Assembly: GCF_016862915.1 (NCBI RefSeq) | Contig: NZ_BONW01000028.1 | Location: forward strand, 1 to 64,000 | DNA: 64,000 nucleotides | Origin: Plantactinospora endophytica | GTDB lineage: Bacteria; Actinomycetota; Actinomycetes; Mycobacteriales; Micromonosporaceae | Reading direction: 5' to 3' | Shown here: positions 16,112-39,613 of the stretch, one piece after another | How positions within the stretch are numbered: position 1 is the first letter of the stretch | How the letters are laid out: each line of letters opens with the position of its first letter | The notes under the pieces: model-generated | Told to the model about the DNA's origin: nothing | The model's database searches: none | The model's input: the letters and a program-made list of their open reading frames with translations, nothing else | Program-made: the position numbers and the translations under genes

Positions 16112-19100
16112 CCCTTCTTCAACCCGGACAGCGCGGTGCGGACACCCCGACCTCTCCCTCCGGCCGGCACGGGTCGCGGGGGAGGGTGGAGAACGGTGCC
16201 ACGGGCCGGGCCAAACTCGACGACATCCTGCCGCTCACCCCGTTGCAGGAGGGCATGCTCTTCCACAACCAGTTCGACGAGTCCACCCTCGACGTGTACG
16301 CGGCCCAGCTCGTCGTCGACCTGGCCGGTCCGCTCGACGAGGCGGCGCTGCGCGCGGCCGGGGAGGCGTTGCTGGCCCGGCACCCCAGCCTGCGCGCCGG
16401 TTTCCGGCACAAGGGACTCAGCAAGCCGGTGCAGGTCATCCCGCAGTCGGTCCGGCTCCCGTTCACCGTGCACGACCTGACCGGCACCCCCGGGCCGGAG
16501 CAGGACGAGGCCGTCCGACGGATCGCGGCGACCGACCGGACCACCCGGTTCCAGCTCGGCCGGCCGCCGCTGCTGCGGTTCGCCCTCGTCCGGCTGGCCC
16601 CGGAGGCGCACCGGCTGGTGCTGACCATGCACCACATCCTCGCCGACGGCTGGTCCACCGCCGTGGTCTGGCGTGACCTGCTCGCCCTCTACCACGGTCG
16701 GGGGCACGCGCCCGAGCTGCCGCCGGTGCCGCCGTACCGCCGCTATCTGGCCTGGCTCGCCGAGCAGGACTCGGAGGCGGCCCGGGGCGCCTGGCGGGAG
16801 TACCTCGCCGAACTCGACGGTGCCACCCTCGTCGCGCCCCGGGCCGGCGACGAGGCGGAGCTGCCGCAACAGCAGCGGCGTACCCTGTCGCCGTCGGTCA
16901 CCGAGGCGCTGACCGGGTGGTGCCGGGCCCGGGGAGTGACGCTGAGCACGGCGGTACAGGCCGCCTGGGTGCTCGTCCTCGGCCATCTCACCGGCCGCAC
17001 CGACGTGGTCACCGGGATCACGGTCTCCGGCCGTCCGCCGGAGCTGCCGGGCGTGGAGACGATGGTCGGCCTGTTCATCAACACCGTGCCGCTGCGGGTA
17101 CGCCTGCGACACGGCGAGACCCTCGGCGGCCTGGTCGAGCGGATGCAGGCGGAGGGCCTGCGGATGCTGCCGTACCAGCACCTCGGGCTGGCGGAGATCC
17201 AGGGCGTGACCGGCCTGCCCAAGCTCTTCGACGCGCCGACCGTCTTCGAGAACTACCCGACCACCGGTCGGGCGGGCGGCAGCGACGGACCATCCACTTC
17301 GGACGAGCTTCGGGTCACCCGGGTGCACGGTCAGGACGGCACCCACTACCCGCTCACCCTGGCCGCCGCACCCGGCTCCGAACTGGTGCTGCGGGTCGAC
17401 CACCGGCCCTCGGTGTTCGGTCCCGAGTTCGGCCGTCGGGTGCTGGACCGGGTCGCCCTGGTACTCGAACGGCTCGCGTCCGCGCCGGACAGCGTGCTGG
17501 ACCGGCTCGACCTGCTATTGCCCGGCGAGCGCGAAGACCTGCTCACCTGGTCGACCGGCGCCGAACCGCCGGCCCCGGCCACCCTGCCGGCGCTGTTCGA
17601 GCAGCGGGTGCGGACGACCCCGGACGCCGTGGCGGTGGTCGACGACGACGAGTCGGTGACCTTCGCCGAGCTGAACCGGCGGGCCAACCGGTGGGCGCAC
17701 CGGCTGCTCGCCCAGGGGATCGGCCCGGAGCAGGTGGTCGCCGTCGCGGCGCGACGCGGCGTGCACCTGCCGACCGCTCTGCTGGCGGTCGCCAAGGCCG
17801 GCGCCGCCTATCTGCCGCTGGACCCGGCCTATCCGGCCGACCGGCTCGCCGCGCTGCTGGCCGACGCCGCGCCGGCCTGCCTGCTCAGCACCACGGCGGT
17901 GGCCGCGGAGCTGGCCGTGCCCGCCGGGCTGCCGGTGCTGGCCATGGACGCCGTCGACGTCGAGCCGGCGCCGGAGCACGACCCGACCGACGCCGACCGG
18001 TCCGCGCCGCTGACCACGGCGCAGGCGGCCTACCGGATCTACACGTCCGGCTCGACCGGCCGCCCGAAGGGCGTCGTGGTCAGCCACCACGGACTGGCCG
18101 CGCTCGTCGCCGGCCAGGCCCGGGTCTTCCGGGTACGTCCCGGCGACCGGGTACTCCAGTTCGCCGCCCTCGGCTTCGACGCCACCGTCTCCGAGTTCTG
18201 GGTGACCCTGGTCTCCGGCGCCACCCTGGTGCTCACCGCGACCGACCGGATGCTGCCCGGACAGCCGCTCGCGGAGCTGATCGCCGACCGTGGGGTCACC
18301 TCCGTCACCCTGCCGCCGACCGCGCTCGCCGCGATGCCCCCGGACGCCCTGCCGCCCGGTGGCACGCTGGTGGTCGCCGGTGAGGCGTGCCCGCCCGCAC
18401 TGGTCAGCCGGTGGGCCCCGGACCGGCGCATGATCAACGCCTATGGGCCGACCGAGAACACCGTCTGCGCCACGATGAGCGACCCGCTGCCCGACGGCGA
18501 GCTGCCACCCATCGGGCGGCCGATCGACGGTACCCGGGTCTACCTGCTCGACCAGCGGCTCGCGTTGACGCCGCTGGAGGGTATCGGCGAGCTGTACCTG
18601 GCGGGTGACGGGCTGGCTCGGGGCTACGCCGGCCGGCCGGGGCTGACCGCCGAGCGGTTCGTCGCCGACCCGTACGGGCCGCCCGGGGCGCGGATGTACC
18701 GCACCGGTGACCGGGCGCGTCGGCGGTCCGACGGCAACCTGGAGTACCTCGGCCGCACCGACACCCAGGTCAAGATCCGTGGCTTCCGGATCGAGCCGGG
18801 CGAGATCGAGGCGGCCCTCGGCGAACATCCGGCGGTGGCCCAGGCGATCGTGGTGGCCGGCGCCGACCACGAGGGCCAGCCGCGCCTGGTCGGGTACGTG
18901 GTGCTGCGGTCCGGCGGCGACGCGCCCGACCTGCGGGCGTACCTGGCCGACCGGCTGCCCGACCACATGGTGCCGGCGGCGGTGGTGGTGCTGCCGGCGA
19001 TGCCGATCACGCCGAACGGCAAGGTCGACACCCGGGCCCTGCCCGACCCGGAACTCGACGGTGCGGCCGGCGGCCGGCCACCGCGCAACCCCCGCGAGGA

Positions 19101-22100
19101 GATCCTCTGCGAGATCTTCGCCGAGCTGCTCGGGGTGGCCCGGGTCGGCATCGACGACAACTTCTTCGACCTGGGCGGGCACTCGCTGCTCGCCACCAAG
19201 CTGATCGGCCGGATCCGGGCCATCCTCGACGCCGAGGTGCCGGTGAAGCGGCTGTTCGACGCGCCGACCGTCGCCGGGCTGGCCGAGGTGCTGGACGAGA
19301 GGGAGGGGCGACGGCCACCGGTCGAACCCGTGCTGCCCCGGCCCGACCGGGTACCGCTGTCGGCCGCGCAACGCCGGCTCTGGTTCCTCAACCGGGTGGA
19401 GGGGCCGAGCCCCACCTACAACATCCCGATGCCGATGCGGCTCCGTGGCGACCTGGACGTGGACGCGCTGCGGGCGGCGCTCGGCGACGTGGTGCAGCGG
19501 CACGAGGTGCTGCGAACCGTCTTCGGCGAGGACGAGACCGGCCCGTACCAGAGCGTCCGGGAAGGTGGCGAACCCGACTTCGCCGTCCTGCCGGTGACCC
19601 CTGACGAGGTACCGGCGCAGATCGCCGCCGTGGCCGGCCACCGGTTCGACCTCGCGGCCGGCGAGCCACCGTTGCGGGTACGGCTGCTCGCCGTGGCCGA
19701 GCAGGAGTACGTGCTGGTCGTGGTGGTACACCACGTGGCCGGGGACGGCTGGTCGATGCCGCTGCTCGCCGCCGACCTGACCCGGGCGTACGCGGCCCGT
19801 TCCGTCGGGACGACCCCGGACCTGCCCCCGCTGCCGGTGTCGTACGCCGACTACGCCCTCTGGCAGCAGCGGGTGCTCGGGGACGAGGAGAACCCGGGTT
19901 CGCTGCTCAGCCGGCAGTTGGCGTTCTGGCGGGAGCGGTTGGCGGACCTGCCGCAGGAGCTGGCGCTGCCCGCCGACCGCCCGCGCCCGGTGGTGGGTAC
20001 GCAGCGCGGCGCCGAGGTGGGCTTCGACGTGCCGGCGGAGCTGCACGACGGCCTGGTGCGGCTGGCCCGGGGCGGCCGGGCGACGCTGTTCATGGTGCTG
20101 CACAGCGCGGTGGTGGGTCTGCTGTCCCGGCTGGGCGCCGGCACCGACATCCCGGTCGGTACCCCGGTCGCGGGGCGGTCCGACGCCGGGCTGGAGGGGC
20201 TGGTCGGGTTCTTCGTCAACTCGCTGGTGCTGCGGGCCGACGCCGGTGACGACCCGTCGTTCCGTGAACTGCTCCGCCGGGTACGCGAGGCGGACCTGGC
20301 GGCGTTCGCGCACCAGGACGTGCCGTTCGAGCGACTGGTCGAGGTGTTGAACCCGGAGCGGTCGCTGGCCCGGCACCCGCTGTTCCAGGTGATGCTCTCG
20401 CTGAACAACACCGAACCGGCCCCGGGGGAGGGCGCGTCCACCGGACTGCGCGTCGAACGGGAACGGGTCGAGGTGCGGACCGCAAAGTTCGACCTGCTGT
20501 TCTCCTTCGCCGAACGGCAGGAGGCGGACGGCCGGCCGGGCGGCATCCAGGGCTCGGTGCAGTACAGCACCGACCTGTTCGACCCGCAGACCGCGCAGGA
20601 GTTCGCCGACCGGCTGGTACGGCTGCTCACCGCCGCCGTGGCGGATCCGACCGTGCGGCTCAGCCGGCTGGAGATCCTCGACCGCGTCGAGCGCACGTCG
20701 GTGGTCAAGACCTGGAACGCCACGGACCGGCCCGCGCCGGACCGGCTCCTGGCGGACCGGCTCGCCGACCAGGCGCGGGCCACCCCGGACGGCTGTGCGG
20801 TCCGGTACGGCAGCACGTCGTTGACCTACCGCGAACTGGACGAGGCGGCGAACCGGCTGGCCCGGCTGCTGCTGGCCCGGGGCGCCGGGCCGGAACGGGT
20901 GGTCGGATTCGCCCTGCACCGGTCGGTGGAGCAGGTGGTGGCACTCGTCGCGGCGGTCAGGATCGGTGCGACCTGCCTGCCGCTGGACGTCGGCCTGCCG
21001 GACGAGCGGGTGGCGGCGGTGCTCCGGGACGCCGATCCGGTAGTGCTGCTGACCGCCGGTGAGGTCGCCGACCGGAGCTGGGCCCGGCAGCCGTACGCGG
21101 TCCGCCTGGACTCCGACGACGTCCGTACCGACCTCGCCGGTCGGGCGGCGACGGCGGTGACCGACGCGGAACGCGGCCGGCCGCTGCGCCGGGACCAGGG
21201 CCTCTACCTGCTCTACACCTCGGGCTCGACCGGCACGCCGAAGGGTGTGCTGATGCCGGTCCGGTCGATCGAGAACCTGATCGAGTGGCAGCGGGACAGC
21301 CTCCCCGGCGGTCCCGGCACCGTGACCGCACAGTTCGCGCCGATCGGCTTCGACGTCGCGATCCAGGAGGTGTGCTTCGCCCTGACCACCGGCCGGACCC
21401 TGGCGATCTGCCCGGAGGACGTCCGTCGGGACGGCCGGCGGCTGGTGCACTGGCTGGCGGAGCAGCAGGTGGCCGAGCTGTTCGCACCCACGCTGGTGGT
21501 CGAGGCGGTCGCCGAGTCGGCCGCCGAGCAGGGGGTACGGCTGCCCGCGCTCACCGACGTGGTCCAGGCCGGCGAGGCGCTGCGGCTGACCGCCGCCACC
21601 CGGGACTTCTTCGCCGCCGAGCCGGGCCGCCGGCTGCACAACCAGTACGGGCCGACGGAGTCGCACGTGGTCACCGGCACCGTGCTGCCGACGGACCCCG
21701 AGCGGTGGCCGGTGCTGCCGGACATCGGCGGCCCGGTCGACAACGCCCGGGTGTACGTGCTGGACGCCACCCTGCGTCCGGTGGCGCCCGGCGTCGTCGG
21801 CGAGCTGTACCTGGCCGGTGAGTGCCTGGCGCGCGGTTACAGCGGGCGGCCGGACCTGACCGCCGAACGCTTCGTCGCCTGCCCGGTCGGTGCGTCGGGG
21901 CGGCGCATGTACCGCACCGGTGACCTCGTCCGCTGGACCCGGGACGGCCGGATCGCCTTCGTCGGCCGGGTGGACACCCAGGTGAAGATCCGTGGGTTCC
22001 GGGTGGAACCGGGGGAGGTCGAGACCGTCCTCGCCGGGCACCCCGGAGTCGGCCAGGCCGCCGTGGTGGCGCAGTCCGGCACCACCGGAGGCAAGCTGCT

Positions 22101-23361
22101 GGCCGCGTACGTGGTGCCGGCGCCGGACGCCGCCGTCGAGCCGGAGGACCTCGCCGAGTACCTGCGCCGCCGGCTGCCGGACTACATGGTCCCGTCGGCG
22201 TTCGTGGTACTCGCCGAGCTGCCGCGCAACCGCAACGGCAAGCTGGACCGGGCCGCCCTGCCGGCGGTGGACGCCGGTGACCGGGCGGGCAGCACGCCGA
22301 GGACCCCCGAGGAGAAGGTGCTCAGCGAGGTCTTCGGCGAGCTGCTCAACCGGGCTCCGGTCGGCATCGACGAGGACTTCTTCGCCCTCGGCGGTCACTC
22401 GTTCCTGGCCACCAAGCTGGTGCAGCAGATCCGTTCGCGGTTCGGTGTCGAGTTGTCGGTGCGCAGCGTCTTCGAGGCGCCGACCGTCGCCGGCCTGGCC
22501 CGCGAGCTGGGGTCGAACCCGGAGCGCGACCCGTTCGCGGTGATCCTGCCGCTGCGCCGGCACGGCGACCGTACGCCGCTGTTCTGCCTGCACCCGGCCT
22601 CCGGCACGAGCTGGAGCTACGCCGGTCTGCTGGCACACCTGCCGGCCGAGTACCCGATCTACGGGGTGCAGGCCCGGGGGCTGGGTGAGCCGGCGGCGCT
22701 GCCCGGCTCGATCGAGGAGATGGCCGAGGACTACGCCGAGCAGATCCGGGCCACGTACCCGTCCGGGCCGTACCGGCTGCTCGGCTGGTCGTTCGGCGGG
22801 CTGCTGGCGCACGCCGTGGCGACCCGGTTGCAGCAGTCCGGCGCCGAGGTGGCGGACCTGTTCATCGTGGACGCGTACCCGAACCCGGAGGTCAGTGTGC
22901 CGGACCGGGCGGACCACGAGATCATCGCCTCGCTGCTGGCCCGTGACTTCGCCGTCGACCAGGCGGAACTGGCCACCGACCTCGACGGGGTGCTGAGCCG
23001 GTACGCCGAGTACCTGCGGGAGACCGACCACCGGCTCGCCGCCCTCGGCGAGCAGGGCCTGAAGGACAGCATGCGGGTGTACGTCAACTGCGCGCGGATC
23101 ATGACCGAATACCAGCCGCAGGTGTTCGACGGCGACCTGACGTTTTTCACCGCCACGTTGAAGTCCGAGGGCATCGCCAGTTCTCCGGAATTGCGTGACC
23201 ATTTCACCGCCGAAGCGTGGTCCCCGCTCATTAAGGGCGGAATTAATAACCATGATATCGAAGACATCCACGGTATGCTGTTCAGCAATCCTTCTTCCGT
23301 GGCGGCGATCGGGCGTGCGGTGGCCTCGACGTTCGCGCAGGCGGAAAAGGCATCCAGGTGA
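16108..23361 (+). CDS. Terminal NRPS, two modules plus thioesterase (C-A-T-C-A-T-TE)
   Basis: Finishes and releases the peptide. The ATG overlaps the stop of the upstream NRPS (ATGA) and is preceded by GGGAGA at 16095-16100, which fixes the start. It has 2,417 residues. An opening linker of about 36 residues is followed by a DCL-type C domain ([20 protein letters not shown] near residue 175) that accepts a D-terminated chain from the upstream epimerase. Then come A6 (about 490-980), T6 (Ser near 1026), an LCL C domain (HHVAGDG near 1208), A7 (about 1545-2050), T7 (Ser near 2098) and a type I thioesterase (about 2140-2410). The TE has GWSFG with Ser2228, an aspartate in IVDAYPN and a histidine in NNHDIED or the following DIHGM. 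One TE at the end implies release here by cyclisation or hydrolysis. MbtH-1 follows immediately. Confidence 0.97.
16216..19310 (+). other. NRPS module 6 (DCL C-A6-T6), predicted Tyr or beta-hydroxy-Tyr
   Basis: The C domain active site is at 16630 and the T6 serine at 19183. Pocket residues of A6 read by eye are D A S T V A A V C. This matches the code I recall for tyrosine/beta-hydroxytyrosine in glycopeptide synthetases and is close to the Phe/Trp code DAWTVAAVC. An aromatic residue is therefore likely. The P450 at 24,939 is of the class that hydroxylates carrier-bound residues at C-beta and may act here (inference). Confidence 0.7.
19330..22510 (+). other. NRPS module 7 (C-A7-T7), Pro-like pocket, last residue
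   Basis: The C domain active site is at 19729 and the T7 serine at 22399. Pocket residues of A7 are D V Q L V A Q V V. This differs from the known proline code DVQLIAHVV at two positions, one of them H to Q. The surrounding sequence ([25 protein letters not shown]) is shared with A1, so modules 1 and 7 probably load the same or related monomer. Confidence 0.6.
22530..23352 (+). other. Type I thioesterase domain
   Basis: C-terminal alpha/beta-hydrolase fold. GWSFG carries the nucleophile codon at 22789 (Ser2228). It is the only chain-release domain in view and marks the end of the assembly line. GC content drops in its last 150 nt. Confidence 0.93.
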
Positions 23362-24938: not shown

Positions 24939-26117
24939 ATGGATCTCGGTGATCCCGGCCTCTACCTCGACATCGACCGGTACGCGTTCTGGGACGAGCA
25001 GATCGCCGACGGCCGGGTGGTGTGGAGCGACCCCGGAAGCTCACCCAACGGCTTCTGGTCGGTCTTCTCCTACGACGCCGTACGCCAGGTCCTCGCTCCG
25101 AACGGGCCGTTCAGCTCCGAGTACGGCATGATGATCGGCTTCGACACGACCCGGCCGGACCGGTCCGGCGGCCAGATGCTGGTGGTGACCGACGGAACGC
25201 ACCACGAGCGGCTGCGCAAGCTCGCCGGCACCCTGCTGTCCCGCCGGACGGCGACCGCGCTCACCGACTTCGTCGAACAGGAGGTCAGGGACCTCCTGGT
25301 GAAGTCCCGGGAGACCGCCGAGACCGACGTCACCGTCGACCTCGGGCCGCACATCCCGGCCTCCGTGGTCTGCGAGATCATGGGCGTGCCGCCCGCCGAC
25401 CGGGACCACCTGCTCACCCTGACGAACCACGCGTTCGGCGGCTCGGACGACAGTTTCTCGAAGATGACGCCCGCCGAGGCACACACCGAGATCCTGCTGT
25501 ACTTCGACAGCCTGATCGAGACCCGGAAACGCCGTCCCGGCGACGACCTGGTGAGCGTCTTCCTCGCCGACCCCGAGCTGTCCGACACCGACGTGCTGAT
25601 GAACTGCGACAACGTCCTGATCGGCGGGAACGAGACGACCCGGCACGCGGTGACCGCCACCTTCAACGCGCTGAGCAGCACACCGGGCGCGCTGGACGCG
25701 CTGCGCGCCGATCCCGCCCTCAACCCGCTGATGGTCGAGGAGATCATCCGGTGGTCCTCGCCGGCCATGCACGTACTGCGGGTCGCCACCGACGACGTGG
25801 TCATCAACGACCAGCCGATCCGGCGTAACGAGCCGGTCGTCGCCTGGCTGCCGGCCGCCAACCGGGACTACCGCGAGTTCGCCGACCCGCACGTCTTCCG
25901 CCCCGACCGCCGGCCCAACAAGCACCTGGCGCTCGGCCACGGCCCGCACCACTGCCTGGGCGCCGCGCTGGCCCGGATGGAACTCTCCGCGCTGCTCCGG
26001 GTCCTCGCCGACGAGGTCCGGTCGGTCGAGGTCACCGACGGGCCGATCTGGCAACGGAGCGTCCTGGTGCAGGGCTACCGCCGGCTGGCGGTCGGCTTCG
26101 AATGGCAGGACGGCTGA
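24939..26117 (+). CDS. Cytochrome P450, probable beta-hydroxylase of a carrier-bound residue
   Basis: 392-residue P450. The start follows AAGGAG at 24926-24931. The haem-binding loop reads LGHGPHHCLG with ligand Cys339, where the first residue is Leu instead of the usual Phe. The I-helix motif is GGNETT and the ExxR motif is EIIR. The N-terminal stretch FWSVFSYDAV followed by FSSEYGMMIGFD resembles, as I recall it, the NRPS-associated P450s that beta-hydroxylate aminoacyl carrier proteins (P450sky, NovI, NikQ group). Likely target: the aromatic residue of module 6 (inference from its pocket code). It needs ferredoxin and reductase supplied elsewhere, as none is encoded nearby. Confidence 0.9.
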   Translation: MDLGDPGLYLDIDRYAFWDEQIADGRVVWSDPGSSPNGFWSVFSYDAVRQVLAPNGPFSSEYGMMIGFDTTRPDRSGGQMLVVTDGTHHERLRKLAGTLLSRRTATALTDFVEQEVRDLLVKSRETAETDVTVDLGPHIPASVVCEIMGVPPADRDHLLTLTNHAFGGSDDSFSKMTPAEAHTEILLYFDSLIETRKRRPGDDLVSVFLADPELSDTDVLMNCDNVLIGGNETTRHAVTATFNALSSTPGALDALRADPALNPLMVEEIIRWSSPAMHVLRVATDDVVINDQPIRRNEPVVAWLPAANRDYREFADPHVFRPDRRPNKHLALGHGPHHCLGAALARMELSALLRVLADEVRSVEVTDGPIWQRSVLVQGYRRLAVGFEWQDG

Positions 26118-26311: not shown

Positions 26312-26539
26312 GTGAGCACCAATCCGTTCGAGGACCCCGAGGGCAGATACCTGGTCCTGGTCAACGACGAGGGCCAGCACTCGCTGTGGCCGTCGTTCGT
26401 CGAGACACCGGCCGGCTGGAAGGTGGCGCTGCCCGAGACCGACCGGCAGTCGGCGTTGGACCACGTGAACGAGAACTGGACCGACATGCGGCCGAAGAGC
26501 CTGGTCGCCGCGATGGCGACGGACGCCACCGCGTCCTGA
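26312..26539 (+). CDS. MbtH-like protein 2
   Basis: 75-residue MbtH chaperone for NRPS adenylation domains, with the same length and signature residues (NPFED, HSLWPSF, NWTDMRP) as MbtH-1. GTG at 26312 is preferred over the in-frame ATG at 26303 because AAGGAG at 26297-26302 directly abuts the ATG but is well spaced from the GTG. It differs from MbtH-1 at seven residues, four of them in the last ten. Silent sites are almost all conserved, which indicates recent duplication or gene conversion. It may serve a different subset of A domains or act as a backup. Confidence 0.96.
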   Translation: MSTNPFEDPEGRYLVLVNDEGQHSLWPSFVETPAGWKVALPETDRQSALDHVNENWTDMRPKSLVAAMATDATAS

Positions 26540-29090: not shown

Positions 29091-29897
29091 ATGTCGGTAA
29101 TGACCTTCGGTGACGTCCGGGTCTCGTACGAGCTGCGGGGCGCCGGTGATCCGATAATCATGATCATGGGCTCGGCAGCGGGTGGCCAGGCGTGGCACAT
29201 GCACCAGGTGCCGGCCCTCGTCGACGCCGGATACCAGGTGGTGACCTTCGACAACCGGGGGATCGGCGCCAACGCCACGGCCGAGCCGTTCACCATCGAC
29301 GACCTGGTCGCGGACACCGCCGGCCTGATCGAACACCTCGACCTCGGCCCGTGCCGGGTGGTCGGCACCTCGATGGGTGGCTACGTGGCGCAGGAACTCG
29401 CCCTCGCCCGGCCCGAGCTGGTGCGCCAGGCGGTGTTCATGGCCAGCCGGGCCCGCAAGGACGCGATCCGCAACGCCCTGTCCCGGGCCGAGGCGGAACT
29501 CTACGACTCCGGCATCGAGCTGCCGGTGAGCTACCGGGCGGCGGTACGGGCGATGCAGACGCTCAGCCCGCGTACCCTCGACGACGACCGGGCCGTCCGC
29601 GACTGGCTCGACCTGTTCGAGCTGTCGTCGGCGCCGGGGCCCGGCATCCGGCACCAGATGGCCCTGGAGGCGATGCCGGACCGGCGGCCCGCGTACGCGA
29701 AGATCAGCGTGCCCTGCCACGTGGTCTCGTTCGCCGACGACCTGATCACCCCGCCGACCCAGGGCCGCGACCTGGCCGACGCCATTCCCGGGGCGACCTA
29801 CGAGGTGATCGCCGACGCCGGCCACTACGGCTACCTGGAGCGGCCCGAGGCGGTCAACAGCAGCCTGCTCACCTTCTTCGGCACCGCCGGCGGCTGA
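29091..29897 (+). CDS. Alpha/beta hydrolase
   Basis: 268-residue cytoplasmic alpha/beta hydrolase with no signal peptide. GTSMGG holds the nucleophilic serine, ADDLITPP offers the acid and DAGHYGYLERP the histidine, so the triad appears complete. The start follows GAGGAGAGA. The sequence is of the esterase/haloperoxidase-like class rather than a typical type II thioesterase, so an editing role is possible but unsupported. It is the last gene of the plus-strand operon, 34 nt after the acylase stop and just before a strong hairpin. Confidence 0.85.
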   Translation: MSVMTFGDVRVSYELRGAGDPIIMIMGSAAGGQAWHMHQVPALVDAGYQVVTFDNRGIGANATAEPFTIDDLVADTAGLIEHLDLGPCRVVGTSMGGYVAQELALARPELVRQAVFMASRARKDAIRNALSRAEAELYDSGIELPVSYRAAVRAMQTLSPRTLDDDRAVRDWLDLFELSSAPGPGIRHQMALEAMPDRRPAYAKISVPCHVVSFADDLITPPTQGRDLADAIPGATYEVIADAGHYGYLERPEAVNSSLLTFFGTAGG

Positions 29898-29980: not shown

Positions 29981-30139
29981 TGTCCCACCGACCGCCTCGA
30001 CCGCGCCGGCAAGGGCAGCTCGATCACCACGTCGGACCGGAGCAGCGCCAGCCGGACCGCCACGGAGCTGGAGTCGGTGGCCCCGCCGTACCGCCACTAC
30101 CGGTTGGACCGCGACGCGACCGGCCGGCACGACGACAAA

Positions 30140-30177
30140 CGCCGCCCGGCCCGGGGAAAACCCCGGAGCGGGCGGCG
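30140..30177 (-). terminator. Hairpin ending the P450-glutamate mutase-VioB-like operon
   Basis: Arms cgccgcccg..ccgggg and ccccgg..cgggcggcg around an AAAA loop, with a two-base internal mismatch. It starts 13 nt beyond the stop of the minus-strand gene ending at 30191. Together with the previous hairpin it fills the convergent gap 29,898-30,190. Confidence 0.8.
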
Positions 30178-30190
30178 TCGGCGGTTCTGC

Positions 30191-32938
30191 TCAGGTCTGC
30201 GGGGACTGGAACGCCGGCCCCAGCACCGTGGACGCGCCGTCGGCGGACGGGATGTCGAAGAGACGCTTGGCCTGGATCTGGAGCTGGCCCATCAACGCCA
30301 CCGCGTTGTCCATCTCCTCCGGGTGGCCGTTGAAGACCCGGTGCAGGCTGGTCAGCATGTTCGTGTACGACTCGTCGCAGCGCAGCGACTCGCGCCGCCC
30401 GACCGAGCCGTCCGCCAGCCGGTACGAGTCGGCGTCGTCGACCACCGGGTACACGCCCTCGGGGTCGAACGGGATCTCCGGACCCTCGTACGCCCACTTG
30501 CCCCGGGAGTTCCGGATGAGCTGCCGGCCGTGCACGATCTCGGCGAACCGGTAGTAGTGGCCGAGCTCCTCGGGGTCGCCGAGGTTGTCCCCGTCGACGT
30601 CGTGCGGGCTGCCCTCGCCCTGCTCGATGATCTGGAGGATGCCGAGCAGCGCGGAGCGGCGGTCGGTGACCTGGAAGAGCGTGCCCGGGGCGTCCGGCCA
30701 GCCGACCTGCTTGGCCGGGTCACCGGTGAACAGCTTGCCGTCGTCGAACCGGATGATCGCCCTGGCGATCTGGTTGTAGTACCAGCCGATCGTCATCGGC
30801 TTGTACTCCGCCTTCGTGAAGAACTCCTCCATCTGCCGCATCGCGGTCGCGTCGGCCTGCTGCACCCGGCCGGCCTTGTCGGTCTGCACGCTGTCCTTGC
30901 CGATCACCGCGCCGTGGAACGCCTTGCCGTCCACCGTCGGGTGCTCGGGCTGCTCGATCGCCATGAACACGTCCTTGACGTGCTGGATGGAGAGCCGCCG
31001 GAGCCGCACGTTCACGTCGGGCATCACCGGGCCGGGCAGCCGGCCGGGGTACGTCGGCACCAGGCCGGGCCGGCCGATCTGCGGGGTACCGCCGATCGCG
31101 TTGAGGATGTTGCAGACCTGCGCCATGTGCTGCATCTCCTCCAGCAGCACGCCCCGGATCAGTTCACGGATGGCGTTGTTGAACCCGGGCTTGATGGAGA
31201 AGAGCGCCGCACTGTACGGCGGGATCGTCGCCTGCTCGATCAGCAGCGCCTGTTGCAGCACCGCCTTCAGCTCTTCCCGGGAGGTGATCTCCATGACGGG
31301 CGGGACCGGCTTGGTGTCCAACCATTTCACGATCATGTCTCGCTTTCCAGGTGAGAGGTCCCGAGTGACGGGCATGTGGGTCGGTGAGTCCACCGGGGCC
31401 AGCAGGGTGCGCTTGACGTACGTCTTCTGCTCCACCACATGCCGGTAGTTGCCGAGGTCGAACAGGTCCCGCATCACCGGGTAGAGGTTGGCGTACTGCT
31501 GGAAGATCGGCCAGACGTCCCGGTTCCAGGTGGGGCGTTCCGGCGCCTCGTGCTTGTTGAAGACGAGTACGGCGACCCGGGCGTCCGGCTGGTTGGGCCG
31601 CTCCGGAGTGTTCAGCAGCACCGCGCTGGTGACACCGTCGATGAAGGTCTCGGTCGGCGGCTCCTTGGCGGTCAGCTTCAGGTCGACCCGACCCCGGGCG
31701 TCGGTGGTGAGGGTGCTCGGGAACTCGATGGTGCTCGTCGGGCTAACCGGGTTCACCTTCACCTCGACCCCGGCCGCCGGCCGGCCGAACCTGGTCACGT
31801 GCACGGTGGTGGTCGCGACGTCGTACGGCCTCGCCGGATAGAGCCGGTGCACGATCTCGTCGGGGTGCAGCCAGATCCCGTCCGGGCTCTCGGCGAGCAG
31901 CACCTGCGGCGGTTCGGCCGCGTTGACCAGCGCGAGTTGCCGGTCGGCGATGCCGGCGAACTGTTCGGCGGTGAGCTGGACGGCGGTGATCCCGCCCCGG
32001 CCCTCCAGGAACGTCGAGTCGATGCCGGGCAGCGGGGCGAGCCGTCGGGGAGTGCCGTCGGGGTCGAGCACCGCCAGGCTGACCACGCCGAGGTCGGTCA
32101 GCGGGCCGCCCTTGCTGCTGGTCGGCCAACTGTTCGACAGGTCCAGGTAGACCCGCCGGGTCTGCTCCTCGGTGCGTACCGGGGCGTCCCACATCGACGT
32201 GCCGGCGACCCGGCGCAGCCGTCGGCCGGCGACGAACCGGCGCGGCTCCCCGGACCGGTACGGGCCGATGCTGCCGACCAGCCGGCCGTAGGTGTGCGAC
32301 CCGCCGTTCTCGATCAGTTCGACGCTGTAGCCGTCCAGCACGAACCGGATCGACAGCATCTCCTCCTCAGCGGCGTCGCGCAGGTCGCGCAGCAGCGCGG
32401 AGGTGACGTTGTCGGCCCACTGGAGGTTCTTCAGCACTGAGGTGAACCCGGCGGCGGCGTTGGTGCCGGCAGGCTGCGGCAGTCCCGGCCCGCGTCGCCA
32501 CAGGTCCTCGATCCAGGACGGCTCCAGGTCGGCCCGGAACTGCTCGGCTCCGGTGGTGTCGACGATCCGCATCCGCATGCCGTAGATGCCGGGTACGGTC
32601 TGGTCGCGCTGGTCGATGTCGACCATCTTGGCGTTGACCCGCAGGTTGTCGTCCCGGATCTGGCCGCCGACCACCGGATCGTCGCCGGGGTTCAGCAGGG
32701 TGCCGTCCGGGCGCAGCCCGCTGCGTACGGTCAGCCCGGAGAGCCGGAACGTGCCGGTGCCCTTGGGGTTGAACAGGCCGTTCTCGTCGATGACGCCTTT
32801 GTCCGTGAAGTAGGCGAGGCGCTGGAAGCGCGGCTCGAAGGCGTTGTTGTTGTAGTAGCGAAGGGCATTGTTGATGGTTGATATGTCCGCCTGGAACTGT
32901 CCGGCGAAGTTCAGGCGTGGGTACCCCAGATAGCTCAC
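30191..32938 (-). CDS. VioB/RebD-like protein with C-terminal ferritin-like domain
   Basis: 915 residues. GTG at 32938 is preceded by a near-perfect AAGGAGGT. The N-terminus YLGYPRLNFAGQ resembles the start of VioB (LDFPRIHFRG), and residues about 548-800 form a helical ferritin-like domain. Candidate metal ligands are Glu in LLIEQATIPPY, Glu/His in LLEEMQHM (near 600) and Glu/His in PEELGHYYRF (near 790). Known relatives VioB, RebD and StaD couple two indole-3-pyruvate imines during bisindole synthesis. They need a tryptophan oxidase, and none is encoded in this window. Here the gene is last in an operon with P450-2 and glutamate mutase, beside an NRPS. Similarity is limited, so a different oxidative or coupling reaction on an amino acid or peptide is more likely than bisindole formation. 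Function unknown. Confidence 0.75.
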   Translation of the reverse strand: MSYLGYPRLNFAGQFQADISTINNALRYYNNNAFEPRFQRLAYFTDKGVIDENGLFNPKGTGTFRLSGLTVRSGLRPDGTLLNPGDDPVVGGQIRDDNLRVNAKMVDIDQRDQTVPGIYGMRMRIVDTTGAEQFRADLEPSWIEDLWRRGPGLPQPAGTNAAAGFTSVLKNLQWADNVTSALLRDLRDAAEEEMLSIRFVLDGYSVELIENGGSHTYGRLVGSIGPYRSGEPRRFVAGRRLRRVAGTSMWDAPVRTEEQTRRVYLDLSNSWPTSSKGGPLTDLGVVSLAVLDPDGTPRRLAPLPGIDSTFLEGRGGITAVQLTAEQFAGIADRQLALVNAAEPPQVLLAESPDGIWLHPDEIVHRLYPARPYDVATTTVHVTRFGRPAAGVEVKVNPVSPTSTIEFPSTLTTDARGRVDLKLTAKEPPTETFIDGVTSAVLLNTPERPNQPDARVAVLVFNKHEAPERPTWNRDVWPIFQQYANLYPVMRDLFDLGNYRHVVEQKTYVKRTLLAPVDSPTHMPVTRDLSPGKRDMIVKWLDTKPVPPVMEITSREELKAVLQQALLIEQATIPPYSAALFSIKPGFNNAIRELIRGVLLEEMQHMAQVCNILNAIGGTPQIGRPGLVPTYPGRLPGPVMPDVNVRLRRLSIQHVKDVFMAIEQPEHPTVDGKAFHGAVIGKDSVQTDKAGRVQQADATAMRQMEEFFTKAEYKPMTIGWYYNQIARAIIRFDDGKLFTGDPAKQVGWPDAPGTLFQVTDRRSALLGILQIIEQGEGSPHDVDGDNLGDPEELGHYYRFAEIVHGRQLIRNSRGKWAYEGPEIPFDPEGVYPVVDDADSYRLADGSVGRRESLRCDESYTNMLTSLHRVFNGHPEEMDNAVALMGQLQIQAKRLFDIPSADGASTVLGPAFQSPQT

Positions 32939-32988
32939 GGTACCTCCTTAATGTCGGACTCGGATGTCGGCTCGGCAGGGGTGTGCCG

Positions 32989-34360
<1,372 letters not shown>

Positions 34361-34368
<8 letters not shown>

Positions 34369-34804
34369 GTTGCGGTGCCGGTTGGCGGGCCGCGTGCAGG
34401 GTGTCCAGCAGCGGCAGCAGCTCGGACAGCCCGGTCACGATGTGGTCGACGCCGAGCGCGGTGAGCCGGTCGAGGTCGGCCGACCGCTTGTGCGCGCCGA
34501 CCGACAGGTTGCCGCCGAGCACCACCGGCCGGTCGAGCCGGCCCTGGCGGCGCAGCTCCGGCAGGTCCCGCAGGTCCGCGTACGCGTGGCCGTTGACGCT
34601 GCCGATCAGGATCGCCTCGGCGGCCGGCTCGGCGTCGAGCGCGTCCGCGAACTCGTGCAGCGGGGTGCAGACCCCGAGGTTGACGACGTGGAAGCCGTGT
34701 GCCCGCAACAGCCGGCAGATGAGCTGGTTGGCGACCGCGTGGGCGTCGCTGGCCGCCACGCCGAGGATGACGGTACGCGGCTGGTCGGTCGGGAGAGGGG
34801 TCAC
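34361..34804 (-). CDS. mutS: Glutamate mutase sigma (B12-binding) subunit with altered DxHxxG
   Basis: 147-residue Rossmann-like cobalamin-binding subunit that pairs with the epsilon subunit. The cobalt-ligating motif, normally DxHxxG, reads Asp20-Ala-His22-Ala-Val-Ala25. The ligand His is kept but the last Gly is Ala. Downstream GSVNGHAYAD replaces the usual SSLYG-type loop and VLGGN is normal. The GTG start overlaps the P450 stop by 4 nt (GTGA). Identification is secure because of the partner gene. Whether the Ala change lowers cobalamin binding is unknown. Confidence 0.94.
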
Positions 34805-36024
34805 GGTGCTACCTCCGGGTCTCGTGGGTCGAAGTGGAGGGGGAGTCCGCGGAGGAAGCGGAAGTTGATGCTGTCCAGCCAGCCGAGTTCGCCGTCGACC
34901 CGCCAGTTGGTGGTCCGCTGCACCAGCCGGCGCATGGCGATCTCGATCTCCGTCTGGGCGAGTACCGCACCGAGGCAGTAGTGGATGCCGTGGCCGAAGG
35001 AGAGGTGGTCGGACGCCTTGCGGGTCAGGTCCAGCCGGTCCGGGTCGGGATAGCGCAGCGGGTCACGGTTGCCGGCGCCGAGCACCAGGGCCACGGACTC
35101 GCCGGCCCGGATCACCTTGCCGGCCACCTCCACGTCGGACAGGGCGATCCGGGTGGTGAACTGCACCGAACTGTCGTACCGGAGGAACTCGTGCGCGGCG
35201 TTCGCCGCGAGATCCGGCTGCCGGCGCAGCAGCTCCGCCTGGTCGGGATGCTCCAGCAGGGCGAGGGCGGCGTTGCCGATCAGGTTCGTGGTGGTTGCCT
35301 GCCCGGCGTCGATGAGCAGCAGGAAGTTCGCGAAGACCTCGTCGTCGGTGTAGTCGCCTTGGCGCAACTGCCCGGCGACCATCTGGGTGAACAGGTCGTC
35401 GCCGATCCCGGCCCGGCGCTCCTCGGCGTTCTCGTCGAAGACCTCGCGCAGCTTCGTCAGCCGGGGCATCTCGGCGTCGGACTGGGAGAAGAACTCCGGC
35501 AGCAGCCCGCGCCACTGTTCCAGCAGGTGCTCGGCGTGCGGCGGGACGCCGGCCAGCATCGCGATGACGCCCCGGGTCAGCGGCTCGGAGAAGTCGTGGA
35601 TCACGTCCAGCCGGCCGGTCGGCACCACCCGGTCCAGCAGGTCGTCGGTGAGCTGCTCGATCGTCGACCGGATGTTCCGGATGAACCGCGTCGACAGGTT
35701 CGCCCGGATCAGTTTGCGCAGCCGGGTGTGCTCCGGCGGCTCGGTGAACAGCATCATCTTCTTGAGAATCGCGGCGAGTGGCGCCATCGCCCGCTGCGAC
35801 TCCGCCGGGAGCTGGGCGTGGAATTCGTCGATGCGGGCGCCGGACAGCCGGTTGTCCTTCGACAACTCGGCCACCTCGGCGTGGGTCAGCACGACCCAGG
35901 TCCGCATCAGGTCGTCCCAATAAACCGGGTGTTGCTCCCGTAGCCGGGAATACAATTCGTAGGGACGCGCGATCCATTCGGACTCGAACAGGTCGAGCAG
36001 ACTGTTGGCTCTCGTCACCGTCAC
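34801..36024 (-). CDS. Cytochrome P450, first gene of the glutamate mutase operon
   Basis: 407-residue soluble P450. The haem loop is FGHGIHYCLG, the I-helix motif is DAGQATTT and ExxR is EFLR, all canonical. GTG at 36024 is preceded by GGAAGGA. It heads a four-gene operon (P450, mutS, mutE, VioB-like) with 4- and 8-nt overlaps, so it probably acts on the same building block or on the peptide that carries it. It is not a close match to the carrier-linked P450 at 24,939. The substrate cannot be read from sequence. The presence of a VioB/RebD-like partner recalls RebP/StaP, but no other bisindole gene supports that. Confidence 0.93.
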   Translation of the reverse strand: MTVTRANSLLDLFESEWIARPYELYSRLREQHPVYWDDLMRTWVVLTHAEVAELSKDNRLSGARIDEFHAQLPAESQRAMAPLAAILKKMMLFTEPPEHTRLRKLIRANLSTRFIRNIRSTIEQLTDDLLDRVVPTGRLDVIHDFSEPLTRGVIAMLAGVPPHAEHLLEQWRGLLPEFFSQSDAEMPRLTKLREVFDENAEERRAGIGDDLFTQMVAGQLRQGDYTDDEVFANFLLLIDAGQATTTNLIGNAALALLEHPDQAELLRRQPDLAANAAHEFLRYDSSVQFTTRIALSDVEVAGKVIRAGESVALVLGAGNRDPLRYPDPDRLDLTRKASDHLSFGHGIHYCLGAVLAQTEIEIAMRRLVQRTTNWRVDGELGWLDSINFRFLRGLPLHFDPRDPEVAP

Positions 36025-36197: not shown

Positions 36198-36296
36198 GGC
36201 CGTGCCGTACCGGTGATGTGCGCCGTGGGAAATCAATTCTGCCGTCGTCTTGCCGGATGATTGCTGCGCTTGGTGGCGGACGGTCCGGGAGCTGTA

Positions 36297-37563: not shown

Positions 37564-37600
37564 CCGGGGACGGCCGGCGGGGCCGTGAGGAGACTATTTG

Positions 37601-39613
37601 ATGTCAGGTATTGAGAGACGCCAGTTCCTTCGTGGGCTGGCCGTCGCCGGGTTCGCCGCCGCCGGTGGCGCCCGGCTCTTCGACAGTGGCCCGGCGTGGG
37701 CGTCCAGCGGCGCGGCGGCGGATCCGCACGAGACCGTGGTGCGGGACGCCACGATGCTCTGGACCCGCCCGCCGACCGGTTGGTGGAACGCGCCGTTCCT
37801 CGGCGACGGATCACTGACCGCCCAGGTGTACGCCGCCGCGCGGGGCACCGGGTTGACCTTCGCGATCGGCGCGGCGGGAACGGCCTGGCACACGCCGACG
37901 GCCCGGTTCACCCTGCCGCTGGCCGGTACCCTCACCGGGGCGCGCTGGCAACTCGACCCGTGGAACGCGGAACTGACCGGCACGGTCAGCACCACCCGAG
38001 GCAGCCTGAAGTTCACCGTCGCGGTGCCGCGCGGCAGCGGTGTGCTGCTGGCCGGGTTCACTCCCGGCGGCGGTGAGCGGGCGGCCGGCCGGCTGACCGG
38101 CGCCACGGACGAGCTGGGCTGGCGCGACCGGTGGACCGGCAGCCGTCGCTGGGTGGCGATCGGCGATCCCGCGACCGGGGTCCGCGAGTTGCTGGCCAAG
38201 GATCCGGAGCAGGTGCTCGCCGCCCACCGCCGGTGGTGGCACGACCACTACTCGGGCAGCTTCGTCTCGGTACCCGACAAGACGTTGCAGCGGTTCCACT
38301 GGTTGCAGGTCTACGCGGCGGCCAGTACCGCGCGCAGCGACCCGGCCGGTGGCCTGGACACCCCGAGCACGCTCGCCTCGACCAACCACCTCGAACTGCA
38401 CCCGGCGGCTGCCGCGGCGGCCGGCGGCGACTGGCCGCAGAGCTTCGACCACCTGGTGTTCGCCACGCCGGGGGCGGGGCTGAAGTCCGGGGACGCGGAG
38501 AACCCGGTGCTCGCCTGGAACCTTCCGGAGGTCTGGGACAGCTACCGGTACGGCGGCGACGCGCGGATCCTGAGCGGGGTGCTCCAGCCGATGCTGCGCA
38601 GCGCCGTCGGCTACTACGCCAACTTCCTGCTGGAGGGTGCGGACGGTCGGCTGCACCTGCCGTCCACCTACTCGCCCGGTTACGGGGACGTCGAGGACAG
38701 CACCCACGACCTCTCGCTGCTGCGCTGGGCCGCCGGCCGGCTGGTGGAGTCGGCCCGGCCCGGCGATCCGGCGTACGCCGAACTCGACCGGTGGCGCGGG
38801 CTGCTCGACCGGCTGGTGCCGTACCACACCGACGAGACCGGTGTGCTGCTCGGCGCGGGTGTCCGGCTGACGATCTCGCAGGCCCAGCCCGCACACCTGC
38901 TCTGGATGCATCCGCTGGGGGAGAAGGCGTGGCGGCGCGACGGTGACCGGGACCTGATGCGGCGCAGTCTGGACCACTGGTCCGGGATGCCGGAGGCGTG
39001 GACCGGCCGGTCGTACCTCTCGGCCGCGACGATGGCGGTCGGGGTGCGGGCGCCGGAGCTGGCGCTGCGGCACCTCGGACAGGTCGTTGCGGGCGGCGAG
39101 CACGCCGGTTCGCGGCTGGGCTCCAGCACGCTCTACCGGGACGGCCGGGTGCCGCAGCCGGGTGCGTCGTTCGAGGCGGCCCAGGTGATGATGCGGATGC
39201 TGGTCTCCGGCGACGACGACAACGTGGTCGAGGTCTTCCCGGGCCTGCCGGGCGCCTGGCGGGACGCCTCGATCGGCGGGCTGCGTGCGCCGGGCGCGTT
39301 CGTGCTGGACGCGTCGCGCAGCGACGGCCGCACCGACTGGATCCGGGTACGCAGCGAGGCCGGCCGCCCGCTGCTGTTGCAGCACGGGATCGCCGGTGCG
39401 GTCGAGGTGCGGGACGAGTCGGGTCGGCTGCTTCCGGCCGAGCAGGCCGGGCCGGGAGTGCTCCGGCTCCAGCCGGCGGCGGGCGCGACGGTCGAGGTAC
39501 GCGCCAGCGGCCCGGTTCGGCAGTCGGGCCTGCGGGACGTGCCGGCGCTGGGTACCGGCCGGCAGTGGGGGTACACCGGGGCCGCCCAGGACGAGCTGCC
39601 CGCCGTGCGCTGA
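37601..39613 (+). CDS. Tat-exported GH95-like six-hairpin glycosidase
   Basis: 670-residue secreted enzyme. ATG 37601 follows GAGGAG at 37587-37592. The N-terminus ERRQFLRG plus a hydrophobic stretch is a clear twin-arginine signal. The body resembles GH95-like (alpha/alpha)6 proteins: the N-terminal sandwich carries NAPFLGDGSL, then come NLPEVWDSYRYGGD and a VEDSTHDLSLLRWAAGRL segment typical of the barrel. Relatives are alpha-L-fucosidases and related enzymes, usually somewhat longer. It sits directly after GT2 on the same strand, within the peptide cluster. It could trim a sugar from the exported product (a protective glycoside) or be a general saccharide hydrolase. The substrate is not predictable. 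Confidence 0.75.
   Translation: MSGIERRQFLRGLAVAGFAAAGGARLFDSGPAWASSGAAADPHETVVRDATMLWTRPPTGWWNAPFLGDGSLTAQVYAAARGTGLTFAIGAAGTAWHTPTARFTLPLAGTLTGARWQLDPWNAELTGTVSTTRGSLKFTVAVPRGSGVLLAGFTPGGGERAAGRLTGATDELGWRDRWTGSRRWVAIGDPATGVRELLAKDPEQVLAAHRRWWHDHYSGSFVSVPDKTLQRFHWLQVYAAASTARSDPAGGLDTPSTLASTNHLELHPAAAAAAGGDWPQSFDHLVFATPGAGLKSGDAENPVLAWNLPEVWDSYRYGGDARILSGVLQPMLRSAVGYYANFLLEGADGRLHLPSTYSPGYGDVEDSTHDLSLLRWAAGRLVESARPGDPAYAELDRWRGLLDRLVPYHTDETGVLLGAGVRLTISQAQPAHLLWMHPLGEKAWRRDGDRDLMRRSLDHWSGMPEAWTGRSYLSAATMAVGVRAPELALRHLGQVVAGGEHAGSRLGSSTLYRDGRVPQPGASFEAAQVMMRMLVSGDDDNVVEVFPGLPGAWRDASIGGLRAPGAFVLDASRSDGRTDWIRVRSEAGRPLLLQHGIAGAVEVRDESGRLLPAEQAGPGVLRLQPAAGATVEVRASGPVRQSGLRDVPALGTGRQWGYTGAAQDELPAVR

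What the first reader, a model, noticed from the sequence alone, without database searches (positions are those of the whole stretch)
30191..36024. Operon joining a P450, glutamate mutase and a VioB/RebD-like ferritin-fold protein inside an NRPS cluster
Seen: four minus-strand genes with 4-, 8- and 50-nt junctions, a near-consensus promoter and a strong terminator. Known: glutamate mutase makes 3-methyl-Asp; VioB-family proteins couple amino-acid imines and need an amino-acid oxidase partner, absent here. Inference: the ferritin-like protein performs a new step on the 3-methyl-Asp unit, another monomer or the finished peptide, perhaps with the P450. Its candidate metal ligands (EQATIPPY, EEMQH, EELGH) look retained, so it should be an active metalloprotein. 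I know of no described peptide pathway with this set.
Basis: partly seen in the sequence, partly recalled or inferred. Interest (0 to 1): 0.78.

Follow-up and report, generated by a model that had tools for sequence, protein, structure and literature searches.

The report
Ferritin-like enzyme of telomycin-type clusters
The odd metal-binding protein beside the glutamate mutase genes is a recurring gene of telomycin-like peptide-antibiotic clusters and a candidate for the unexplained step that puts a double bond into tryptophan; the glutamate mutase beside it is a separate local addition.

Summary
The four-gene minus-strand operon is real. The 915-aa protein carries Pfam Ferritin-like PF12902 with six expected di-metal ligands, but gives no match to the VioB model TIGR04492: a superfamily relative, not a VioB. 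Ten fused homologues of at least 54% identity were found, window included; 7 of 10 lie with NRPS genes on the fetched stretch, the other 3 lie at contig ends. Close glutamate mutase genes accompany only 3 of 10, so the protein does not belong to the 3-methyl-Asp branch. With an upstream contig the window's genome encodes 4+5+2 = 11 NRPS modules, as for telomycin; S. griseomycini, a relative, has both terminal-module codes of telomycin's Tem22. Tailoring enzymes tend to follow modules: AT-MT fusion with module 9, Tem29-type P450 with Pro7, P450a with a module-2 type, the ferritin-like gene with a Trp8-lineage module (5 of 5 clusters whose modules 7-9 could be read). Telomycin's Z-dehydrotryptophan had no known enzyme in a 2023 review. 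I propose that this protein is the peptidyl-Trp desaturase. This is inferred: the telomycin cluster itself was not readable, and the window's residues 8/9 may not be Trp.

The parts
30191..32938 (-). 915-aa protein: N-terminal beta-rich part (about 1-540) fused to a C-terminal PF12902 ferritin-like domain (about 550-910); proposed di-metal oxidase of a Trp-type residue
   Evidence: Pfam 3e-53; 10 fused homologues with the window; E568, E601, H604, E772, E791, H794 in 10 of 10; AlphaFold2 mean pLDDT 67.6; Foldseek best hit 3hl1
32989..34368 (-). MutE, glutamate mutase large subunit (3-methyl-Asp supply)
   Evidence: PF06368 5e-109; below TIGR01503 cut-off
34361..34804 (-). MutS, glutamate mutase B12-binding subunit
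   Evidence: PF02310 6e-12; best NCBIfam NF002612 9e-27, below cut-off
34801..36024 (-). P450a; proposed to follow NRPS module 2 rather than the ferritin-like protein
   Evidence: PF00067; orthologues at 58-75% in 6 of the 9 other clusters
30138..30179 (-). operon-end hairpin, terminator-like
   Evidence: z -4.5, -47 kcal/mol
2..16111 (+). NRPS with 5 A domains: DVQYVAQVI (Pro), DILQLGLVW (Gly), DMTKVGAVN (Asp/MeAsp?), DSSTHGGVA, DVAICGAVA; runs off the contig start
   Evidence: Pfam, codes, tree; residue names recalled
7088..7423 (+). specificity region of module 7, DMTKVGAVN, Asp clade: proposed 3-methyl-Asp module
10277..10621 (+). specificity region of module 8, DSSTHGGVA, in the Trp8 clade
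13469..13813 (+). specificity region of module 9, DVAICGAVA, in the Trp8 clade
16117..23361 (+). terminal NRPS dimodule Tyr(DASTVAAVC)-Pro(DVQFVAQVV)-TE (start codon approximate); counterpart of Tem22
   Evidence: Pfam incl. Thioesterase, codes
24939..26117 (+). second P450, in the position of Tem23
   Evidence: PF00067; 34% to the S. griseomycini enzyme in that position
26318..26539 (+). MbtH-like protein (start approximate)
   Evidence: PF03621
26618..29056 (+). penicillin-amidase-type acylase, counterpart of telomycin acylase Tem25
   Evidence: PF01804 4e-116; 58-70% in 4 other clusters
29091..29897 (+). alpha/beta hydrolase next to the acylase
   Evidence: conserved order
37598..39613 (+). 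GH95-like protein with a twin-arginine-type N-terminus; 39-66% homologue in 7 of the 9 other clusters, plus a fragment at the contig edge in A. rhizosphaerae
   Evidence: N-terminus read from the sequence

Best explanation
The window is part of a telomycin-type cyclic depsipeptide pathway: 11 NRPS modules, a presumed fatty-acyl starter, and N-deacylation by a penicillin-amidase-type acylase. The 915-aa protein is a di-metal ferritin-like oxidase that removes two hydrogens (C-alpha and C-beta) from the residue made by the Trp8-type module, giving the Z-dehydro-Trp of telomycin and a corresponding dehydro-aromatic residue at position 8 or 9 here. MutS/MutE are a local insertion that supplies 3-methyl-Asp for module 7. 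The P450 acts elsewhere, most likely on residue 2. Shown: operon, domain, ligands, NRPS association, telomycin-like module count and layout, independence from glutamate mutase. Inferred: that the telomycin cluster itself carries the gene, that the substrate is Trp8, that the reaction is desaturation, and the fatty-acyl start.
For: Ten fused homologues, close glutamate mutase with only 3. Terminal-dimodule codes of S. griseomycini (DAYLTGLMN, DVQFVSQVM) equal the first nine letters printed for Tem22 of S. canus; G025 shares the first; the window's last code DVQFVAQVV equals that printed for S. formicae (PMC9113097 passages). Three telomycin hydroxylations are assigned (Tem23 Leu; Tem29 and Tem32 Pro; PMC8471579 passages), while formation of Z-dehydro-Trp 'has remained unanswered' (PMC10880069 passages). 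S. griseomycini has a P450, MbtH, acylase, hydrolase, AT-MT fusion, the ferritin-like gene, a P450 homologue, an ABC transporter gene and an Asp/Asn-type hydroxylase in that order. A Trp8-clade A domain is present in 5 of 5 readable clusters (window, G025, S. hirsuta, S. griseomycini, LUP47B), support 97/87. Enzyme-module tracking: AT-MT fusion and DAGxLGVVL module 9 together in 4 of 4, neither in the window; Tem29-type P450 only where module 7 is Pro (2 of 2). The gene is not needed for beta-methyl amino acid supply as such: full-length AT-MT fusions also occur in 2 Streptomyces (G387, G693) without it. Six ligands in 10 of 10. 4 further modules on contig C42.
Against: The S. canus telomycin cluster could not be read; its carrying this gene is inferred from S. 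griseomycini, whose first modules do not match telomycin throughout. The window's module 8/9 codes are not assigned to Trp by any test here. S. griseomycini also has an FMN-dependent dehydrogenase gene that could make dehydro-Trp, though no homologue was found in the other clusters. Telomycin-type NRPSs without the gene were not searched for successfully. A ferritin-like enzyme doing peptidyl desaturation is not known to me; chromopyrrolic acid synthases are described as heme-containing (PMC10851217 passages), so the cofactor could be heme. The 3-D model is moderate and poor near the site (residues 777-791 below pLDDT 50).
Confidence: 0.45

Rival explanations
1. The ferritin-like protein makes another oxidative change on the conserved aromatic pair (for example coupling of residues 8 and 9, or beta-hydroxylation), closer to the coupling chemistry of VioB/RebD, and dehydro-Trp comes from another enzyme.
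For: The VioB model TIGR04492 weakly hits the ferritin-like domain of two other Actinoplanes-family PF12902 proteins, so the domain is shared; chromopyrrolic acid synthase couples two Trp imines at C-beta (PMC10851217 passages); two adjacent modules of the Trp8/Trp9 lineages in all 5 readable clusters.
Against: No such cross-link is known in telomycin (recalled structure). No amino-acid oxidase partner among the 29 window Pfam queries. No match to TIGR04492.
Confidence: 0.2
2. One reading: the protein modifies the 3-methyl-Asp unit made by the glutamate mutase in the same operon.
For: Same operon order in the window, A. utahensis and Sciscionella.
Against: 7 of 10 homologues have no MutE or MutS in the fetched stretch; genome-wide, MutE is not found in 5 of those 7 and only at 35-37% identity on other contigs in 2. 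S. griseomycini and G025 have Pro at module 7.
Confidence: 0.05
3. It is not a tailoring enzyme but a protective or resistance protein (metal or oxidant handling, or work with the GH95-like gene) of the cluster.
For: The GH95-like gene is present in 8 of 10 clusters including the window, slightly steadier than P450a (7 of 10). Relatives elsewhere form a two-gene pair in clusters of unknown function. Ferritin-like genes beside lodA-like genes in fungi are reported (PMC4417212 passages).
Against: The six-ligand site is kept in 10 of 10 fused proteins but altered in 4 of 6 other relatives examined, one of these only E to D; the gene abuts an aminotransferase-methyltransferase fusion in three clusters.
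Confidence: 0.18

Closest known systems
Telomycin biosynthetic cluster (tem) of Streptomyces canus
   Same: 11 residues/modules ending in a dimodule plus TE with Pro last; P450, MbtH, penicillin-amidase-type acylase and alpha/beta hydrolase follow the terminal NRPS. S. griseomycini shares both Tem22 A-domain codes, G025 one, the window's last code equals that of S. formicae.
   Different: Window has Pro5, an Asp-type module 7 with MutS/MutE, two Trp8-lineage modules and no DAGxLGVVL module 9, Tyr at 10, glycosyltransferases, and in the 100 kb examined no AT-MT fusion and no Tem29- or Tem32-type orthologue. The tem cluster itself was not read here.
VioB / RebD / StaD (imine-dimer, chromopyrrolic acid synthases)
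   Same: Ferritin-like domain within a large protein (recalled for VioB; supported by weak TIGR04492 hits to that domain in two other proteins).
   Different: No match to TIGR04492; no tryptophan oxidase partner found; NRPS setting. No VioB, RebD or StaD sequence was compared directly.
Friulimicin-type glutamate mutase (GlmA/GlmB) in lipopeptide clusters
   Same: Two-subunit glutamate mutase supplying 3-methyl-Asp within an NRPS cluster (PMC9113097 passages).
   Different: Here the genes sit between a P450 and the ferritin-like gene of a telomycin-type cluster.
AuAHLA acylase of Actinoplanes utahensis
   Same: The acylase in the A. utahensis copy of this cluster is 808 aa as called here, the length reported for AuAHLA, which is encoded in an NRPS cluster predicted '(nrp) + (tyr-pro)' (PMC4290995 whole text; PMC8388760 passages).
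   Different: Identity is inferred from length, codes and distance to a second cluster, not from an accession match; the papers used strain NRRL 12052, the locus here is NBRC 13244.

Membership tests
PF12902 Ferritin-like | Score above Pfam gathering cut-off | tested here: met
   181 bits against 22.3
PF12902 Ferritin-like | Six di-metal ligands E / ExxH / E / ExxH on four helices | tested here: met
   Residues invariant in 10 of 10 fused homologues; helices predicted with moderate confidence, geometry not examined
VioB (TIGR04492) | Full-length equivalog score (cut-off 1250 bits) | tested here: not met
   No match for the window protein at E 0.01 nor for the S. griseomycini orthologue at 1e-4
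VioB / RebD / StaD | Partner amino-acid (Trp) oxidase gene | tested here: not met
   None among 29 window queries given to Pfam
VioB / RebD / StaD | Heme cofactor, imine dimer formation | not testable with these tools
   Needs protein
Telomycin-type cluster | 11 modules with a C-A-T / C-A-T-TE dimodular end | tested here: met
   4 modules on contig C42, 5 and 2 modules with TE in the window; the two contigs were not joined by sequence, the order rests on G025 and relatives
Telomycin-type cluster | Fatty acyl-AMP ligase (FAAL) start | tested here: inconclusive
   An AMP-binding enzyme gene lies next to the C42 NRPS (L161:14666-16426); the FAAL label is inferred
Telomycin-type cluster | Gly6-Pro7-Trp8-Trp9-Leu10-Pro11 specificities | tested here: not met
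   Codes in G025 and S. griseomycini fit; window reads Gly, Asp type, Trp8 type, Trp8 type, Tyr, Pro. So telomycin-like, not telomycin
Telomycin-type cluster | Dedicated acylase of the penicillin-amidase family | tested here: met
   PF01804 4e-116
Glutamate mutase (MutS/MutE) | Equivalog scores TIGR01503, NF002612, TIGR01501 | tested here: not met
   318 of 390, 93 of 110, 76 of 136 bits; Pfam domains are met, so a divergent glutamate mutase

The most novel reading that the evidence does not exclude
A PF12902 ferritin-like protein is a new class of peptidyl-tryptophan alpha,beta-desaturase: a di-metal (or heme) enzyme that makes the Z-dehydro-Trp of telomycin-type antibiotics, and whose split two-gene relatives in other phyla, one of them near LodA/GoxA-type tryptophylquinone enzyme genes and several beside ebo-type genes, do similar chemistry on Trp-derived substrates.
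Probability: 0.35. Interest if true: 0.75.

Novelty: new variant of a known kind. Interest (0 to 1): 0.6.

Why it matters
The enzyme that makes dehydrotryptophan in telomycin was listed as unknown in a 2023 review (PMC10880069, passages). If this protein does it, one gene deletion answers the question, a large ferritin-like family annotated mostly by its domain gains a function, and a new catalyst for unsaturated residues in peptides becomes available. The window also shows how telomycin-type assembly lines swap residues together with the enzymes that modify them.

Tried and rejected
Glutamate mutase partnership: rejected by neighbourhoods and by a MutE search of the nine other homologues' genomes. 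Role in beta-methyl amino acid supply, because the gene abuts the AT-MT fusion in three clusters: rejected because the window, A. utahensis and Sciscionella have the gene without the fusion in the stretches read, and G387 and G693 have the fusion without the gene. P450a as obligatory partner: rejected (best P450 35-39% in three whole genomes; 13 kb away in G025). The alpha/beta hydrolase as marker for telomycin-type clusters without the ferritin-like gene failed: too common, 90 of 392 and 59 of 354 genomes, so the converse test (telomycin-type NRPS lacking the gene) was not done. G415 in Streptomyces has the two halves in two overlapping reading frames, outside an NRPS context in the 100 kb read. 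PF12902 proteins of Micromonosporaceae with wider flanks (five stretches, six) were looked at as possible RebD/StaD; the three with long open frames (997-1027 aa) have PF12902 near the C-terminus, and two of them, G098 and G031, sit beside GH15 and thiamine-pyrophosphate enzyme genes, not Trp oxidases, so no RebD/StaD yardstick was found. Foldseek on the whole model was informative only for the ferritin part (3hl1); the other hits match the beta-rich N-terminus loosely. Literature: 10 searches of the open PMC library listed no paper that I could see giving this protein a function; subscription papers, including the telomycin paper of Fu et al. 2015, were not readable and are cited from recall or through other papers. 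Residue names for A-domain codes (except those printed for Tem22), the full telomycin sequence and the DxHxxG motif are recalled.

Full report
1. Observation. The four minus-strand genes are present at the stated coordinates with junctions of -4, -8 and +50 nt. Pfam gives p450, B12-binding, Met_asp_mut_E and Ferritin-like PF12902 (3e-53, residues 561-802 of 915). A strong hairpin lies downstream at about 30138-30179 (-47 kcal/mol, z -4.5), with only a short U tail. The promoter is a 9-of-12 match that the stricter scan did not list. The surrounding genes include two NRPS genes with seven A domains and a TE, a second P450, MbtH, a penicillin-amidase-type acylase, an alpha/beta hydrolase, glycosyltransferases, a GH95-like protein and ABC transporters.

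2. The protein. Six residues expected of a ferritin-like di-metal site (E568; E601, H604; E772; E791, H794) are invariant in 10 of 10 fused homologues (alignments). In six other relatives (five separate ferritin-like proteins and the second half of the G415 copy) the set is complete in two (Gloeothece, Sinorhizobium) and altered in four, in Aureibacter only E to D. An AlphaFold2 model (nine sequences, mean pLDDT 67.6, pTM 0.54) shows a beta-rich N-terminal half and a helical C-terminal half. Foldseek's best PDB hit is 3hl1, a Caulobacter ferritin-like protein (E 7e-6), also the only PDB sequence hit (E 0.001). NCBIfam has a VioB model, TIGR04492; the window protein gives no match at E 0.01 and the S. 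griseomycini orthologue none at 1e-4. It is a PF12902 relative, not a VioB. In plasmid records the two halves can be two neighbouring genes, 'hypothetical protein' and 'ferritin-like protein': 8 of 166 matching records cover at least 80% of the query, and 4 of these 8 were opened; two further records with the ferritin part only were opened as well.

3. Distribution. Of 354 genomes of the window's family, 20 had a match at E 0.001; full-length ones only in the window's genome, G072 (75%) and G025 (55%). With the window and G025 this makes ten. Among 392 Streptomyces searched at E 1e-60, three had matches: S. griseomycini, LUP47B, and G415 with a two-frame copy outside an NRPS context.

4. Neighbours (ten stretches; two are short, 5.2 and 16.5 kb, and the TRM68367 contig ends just after the gene). 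NRPS genes on the same stretch: 7 of 10 (window, A. utahensis, Sciscionella, G025, S. hirsuta, S. griseomycini, LUP47B); of the other three, S. acidipaludis has an MbtH gene, A. rhizosphaerae an NRPS-like fragment (35%), and TRM68367 has LUP47B-like NRPS modules on other contigs. MutE and MutS: 3 of 10 (window, A. utahensis, Sciscionella); a genome-wide MutE search in the nine others found the two known ones, nothing in five, and 37% and 35% proteins on other contigs in TRM68367 and S. acidipaludis. P450a orthologue (58% or more): 7 of 10 including the window; in the whole genomes of the other three the best P450 is 35-39%. GH95-like: 8 of 10 including the window, plus a fragment in A. rhizosphaerae; none in 80 kb of S. 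hirsuta. Acylase and alpha/beta hydrolase: 5 of 10 including the window. AT-MT fusion: 4 of 10 (G025, S. hirsuta, S. griseomycini, LUP47B), directly after the ferritin-like gene in three and about 5.5 kb away in S. hirsuta.

5. What the pathway is. A-domain codes of S. griseomycini's last two modules, DAYLTGLMN and DVQFVSQVM, equal the first nine letters of the Tem22 codes printed for S. canus; G025 has DAYLTGLMN and DVQFISQVI; the window's last code, DVQFVAQVV, equals that printed for S. formicae (PMC9113097, passages). Gene order after that NRPS in S. griseomycini is P450, MbtH, acylase, alpha/beta hydrolase, AT-MT fusion, ferritin-like, P450, ABC transporter, Asp/Asn-type hydroxylase (the second P450, MbtH, acylase, hydrolase and ABC gene are named by homology to Pfam-tested proteins). 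Reported assignments are Tem23 P450 (Leu), Tem25 acylase, Tem29 P450 (trans-3-OH-Pro) and Tem32 2OG oxygenase (cis-3-OH-Pro) (PMC8471579, PMC9321520, PMC10587159, passages). By this numbering the ferritin-like gene would be tem28; that is inference, the deposit was not read. S. griseomycini's first modules are not those of telomycin throughout, so its product is a relative. For the window, four more modules are on contig C42: Asp type, DASTVAAVD, Thr, DVLKVGAVN, with an AMP-binding enzyme gene beside them that I take for the FAAL. With the window's Pro, Gly, DMTKVGAVN, DSSTHGGVA, DVAICGAVA and Tyr, Pro, TE this makes 11. A. utahensis (contig C125) and Sciscionella (C103) have the same four first codes to within one letter each. 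In Sciscionella the first module of the next gene reads Gly, so a position-5 module is not seen there; LUP47B has one module more than telomycin by my reading.

6. Which enzyme follows which module. An ML tree of 53 A domains puts the window's modules 8 and 9 in one clade with module 8 of S. hirsuta, G025, S. griseomycini and LUP47B (97/87), sister to the module-9 clade DAGxLGVVL, which has four rows and none from the window. The AT-MT fusion occurs in exactly these four clusters; TRM68367 also has the module (79% to LUP47B), with the fusion's expected place beyond its contig end. The Tem29-type P450 and the Tem32-type hydroxylase occur only in G025 and S. griseomycini, where module 7 is Pro. 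MutS/MutE occur with an Asp-type module 7 in the window, the only one of the three MutSE clusters whose module 7 could be read; S. hirsuta also has an Asp-type module 7 without them, so the code alone does not decide methylation. P450a occurs in the seven genomes where a DAST(V/I)AAV(D/E) module is seen and not in S. griseomycini, whose module 2 is Ser but whose assembly line is incomplete at the contig ends. The ferritin-like gene occurs with a Trp8-clade module in 5 of 5 clusters whose modules 7-9 could be read.

7. Reading. In telomycin three hydroxylations have enzymes and Z-dehydro-Trp does not (PMC10880069, passages). The ferritin-like gene is a conserved oxidative-type gene without a job and follows the Trp8 module; I propose it desaturates that residue. 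Against this: the tem cluster was not read; S. griseomycini also has an FMN-dependent dehydrogenase gene without a homologue found in the other clusters; the window's residues 8 and 9 are not proven to be Trp. As a test of the alternative that it serves beta-methyl amino acid supply, I looked for the AT-MT fusion in the same 392 Streptomyces: 10 have a match at E 1e-80; the full-length fusion is in four, two with the ferritin-like gene and two (G387, G693) without it and, in the 85-100 kb read, without a telomycin-type NRPS. The other six matches are partial; one, G385, has the two halves as separate genes next to a Trp halogenase.

8. Verdict. Observation confirmed; the 3-methyl-Asp idea is not supported; the cluster is a telomycin-type variant with an added glutamate mutase; the ferritin-like protein is a conserved member of that type with a testable proposed role.

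Noticed in passing
window 26618-29056; A. utahensis L027:9273-11699: The acylase of the A. utahensis copy is 808 aa, like AuAHLA, and lies in a Tyr-Pro-terminated NRPS cluster about 84 kb from a second alpha/beta hydrolase on the same contig, fitting the reported ahl-aac distance of 88 kb (PMC4290995). AuAHLA, studied as a quorum-quenching and penicillin acylase, is then probably this peptide's N-deacylase. The two papers disagree on which cluster number holds which acylase.
   Followed up: partly
L079, L080, L084 (plasmid records of Mycetohabitans, Gloeothece, Aureibacter): Split two-gene form of the protein lies beside ebo-type genes (clear in Mycetohabitans and Aureibacter, partial in Gloeothece); in Mycetohabitans also within a few kb of LodA/GoxA-type and Trp 7-halogenase genes. 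A 2015 paper (PMC4417212, passages) already noted PF12902 genes beside lodA-like genes in fungi.
   Followed up: partly
window 37598-39613, 23745-24902, 36261-37484: GH95-like protein with a twin-arginine-type signal plus MGT-type glycosyltransferases: looks like intracellular glycosylation and later removal, but the GH95-like gene also occurs in stretches without the GT_A homologue (G025, S. griseomycini).
   Followed up: no
L032:2982-5285 (G025), L045:5772-7481 (S. acidipaludis): Trp halogenase genes beside (G025) or about 2.5 kb from (S. acidipaludis) the ferritin-like gene, suggesting halogenated Trp in those products.
   Followed up: no
L076 (G415) 8502179-8505017: Streptomyces copy of the protein in two overlapping reading frames outside any NRPS cluster in the 100 kb read.
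   Followed up: no
window 39802-40776: 324-aa protein with a C-terminal winged-helix match and an N-terminal part without a Pfam match, conserved next to the GH95-like gene in A. utahensis, Sciscionella and G025.
   Followed up: no
window 34361-34804: MutS cobalamin motif reads DAHAVA where DxHxxG is usual (motif recalled).
   Followed up: no
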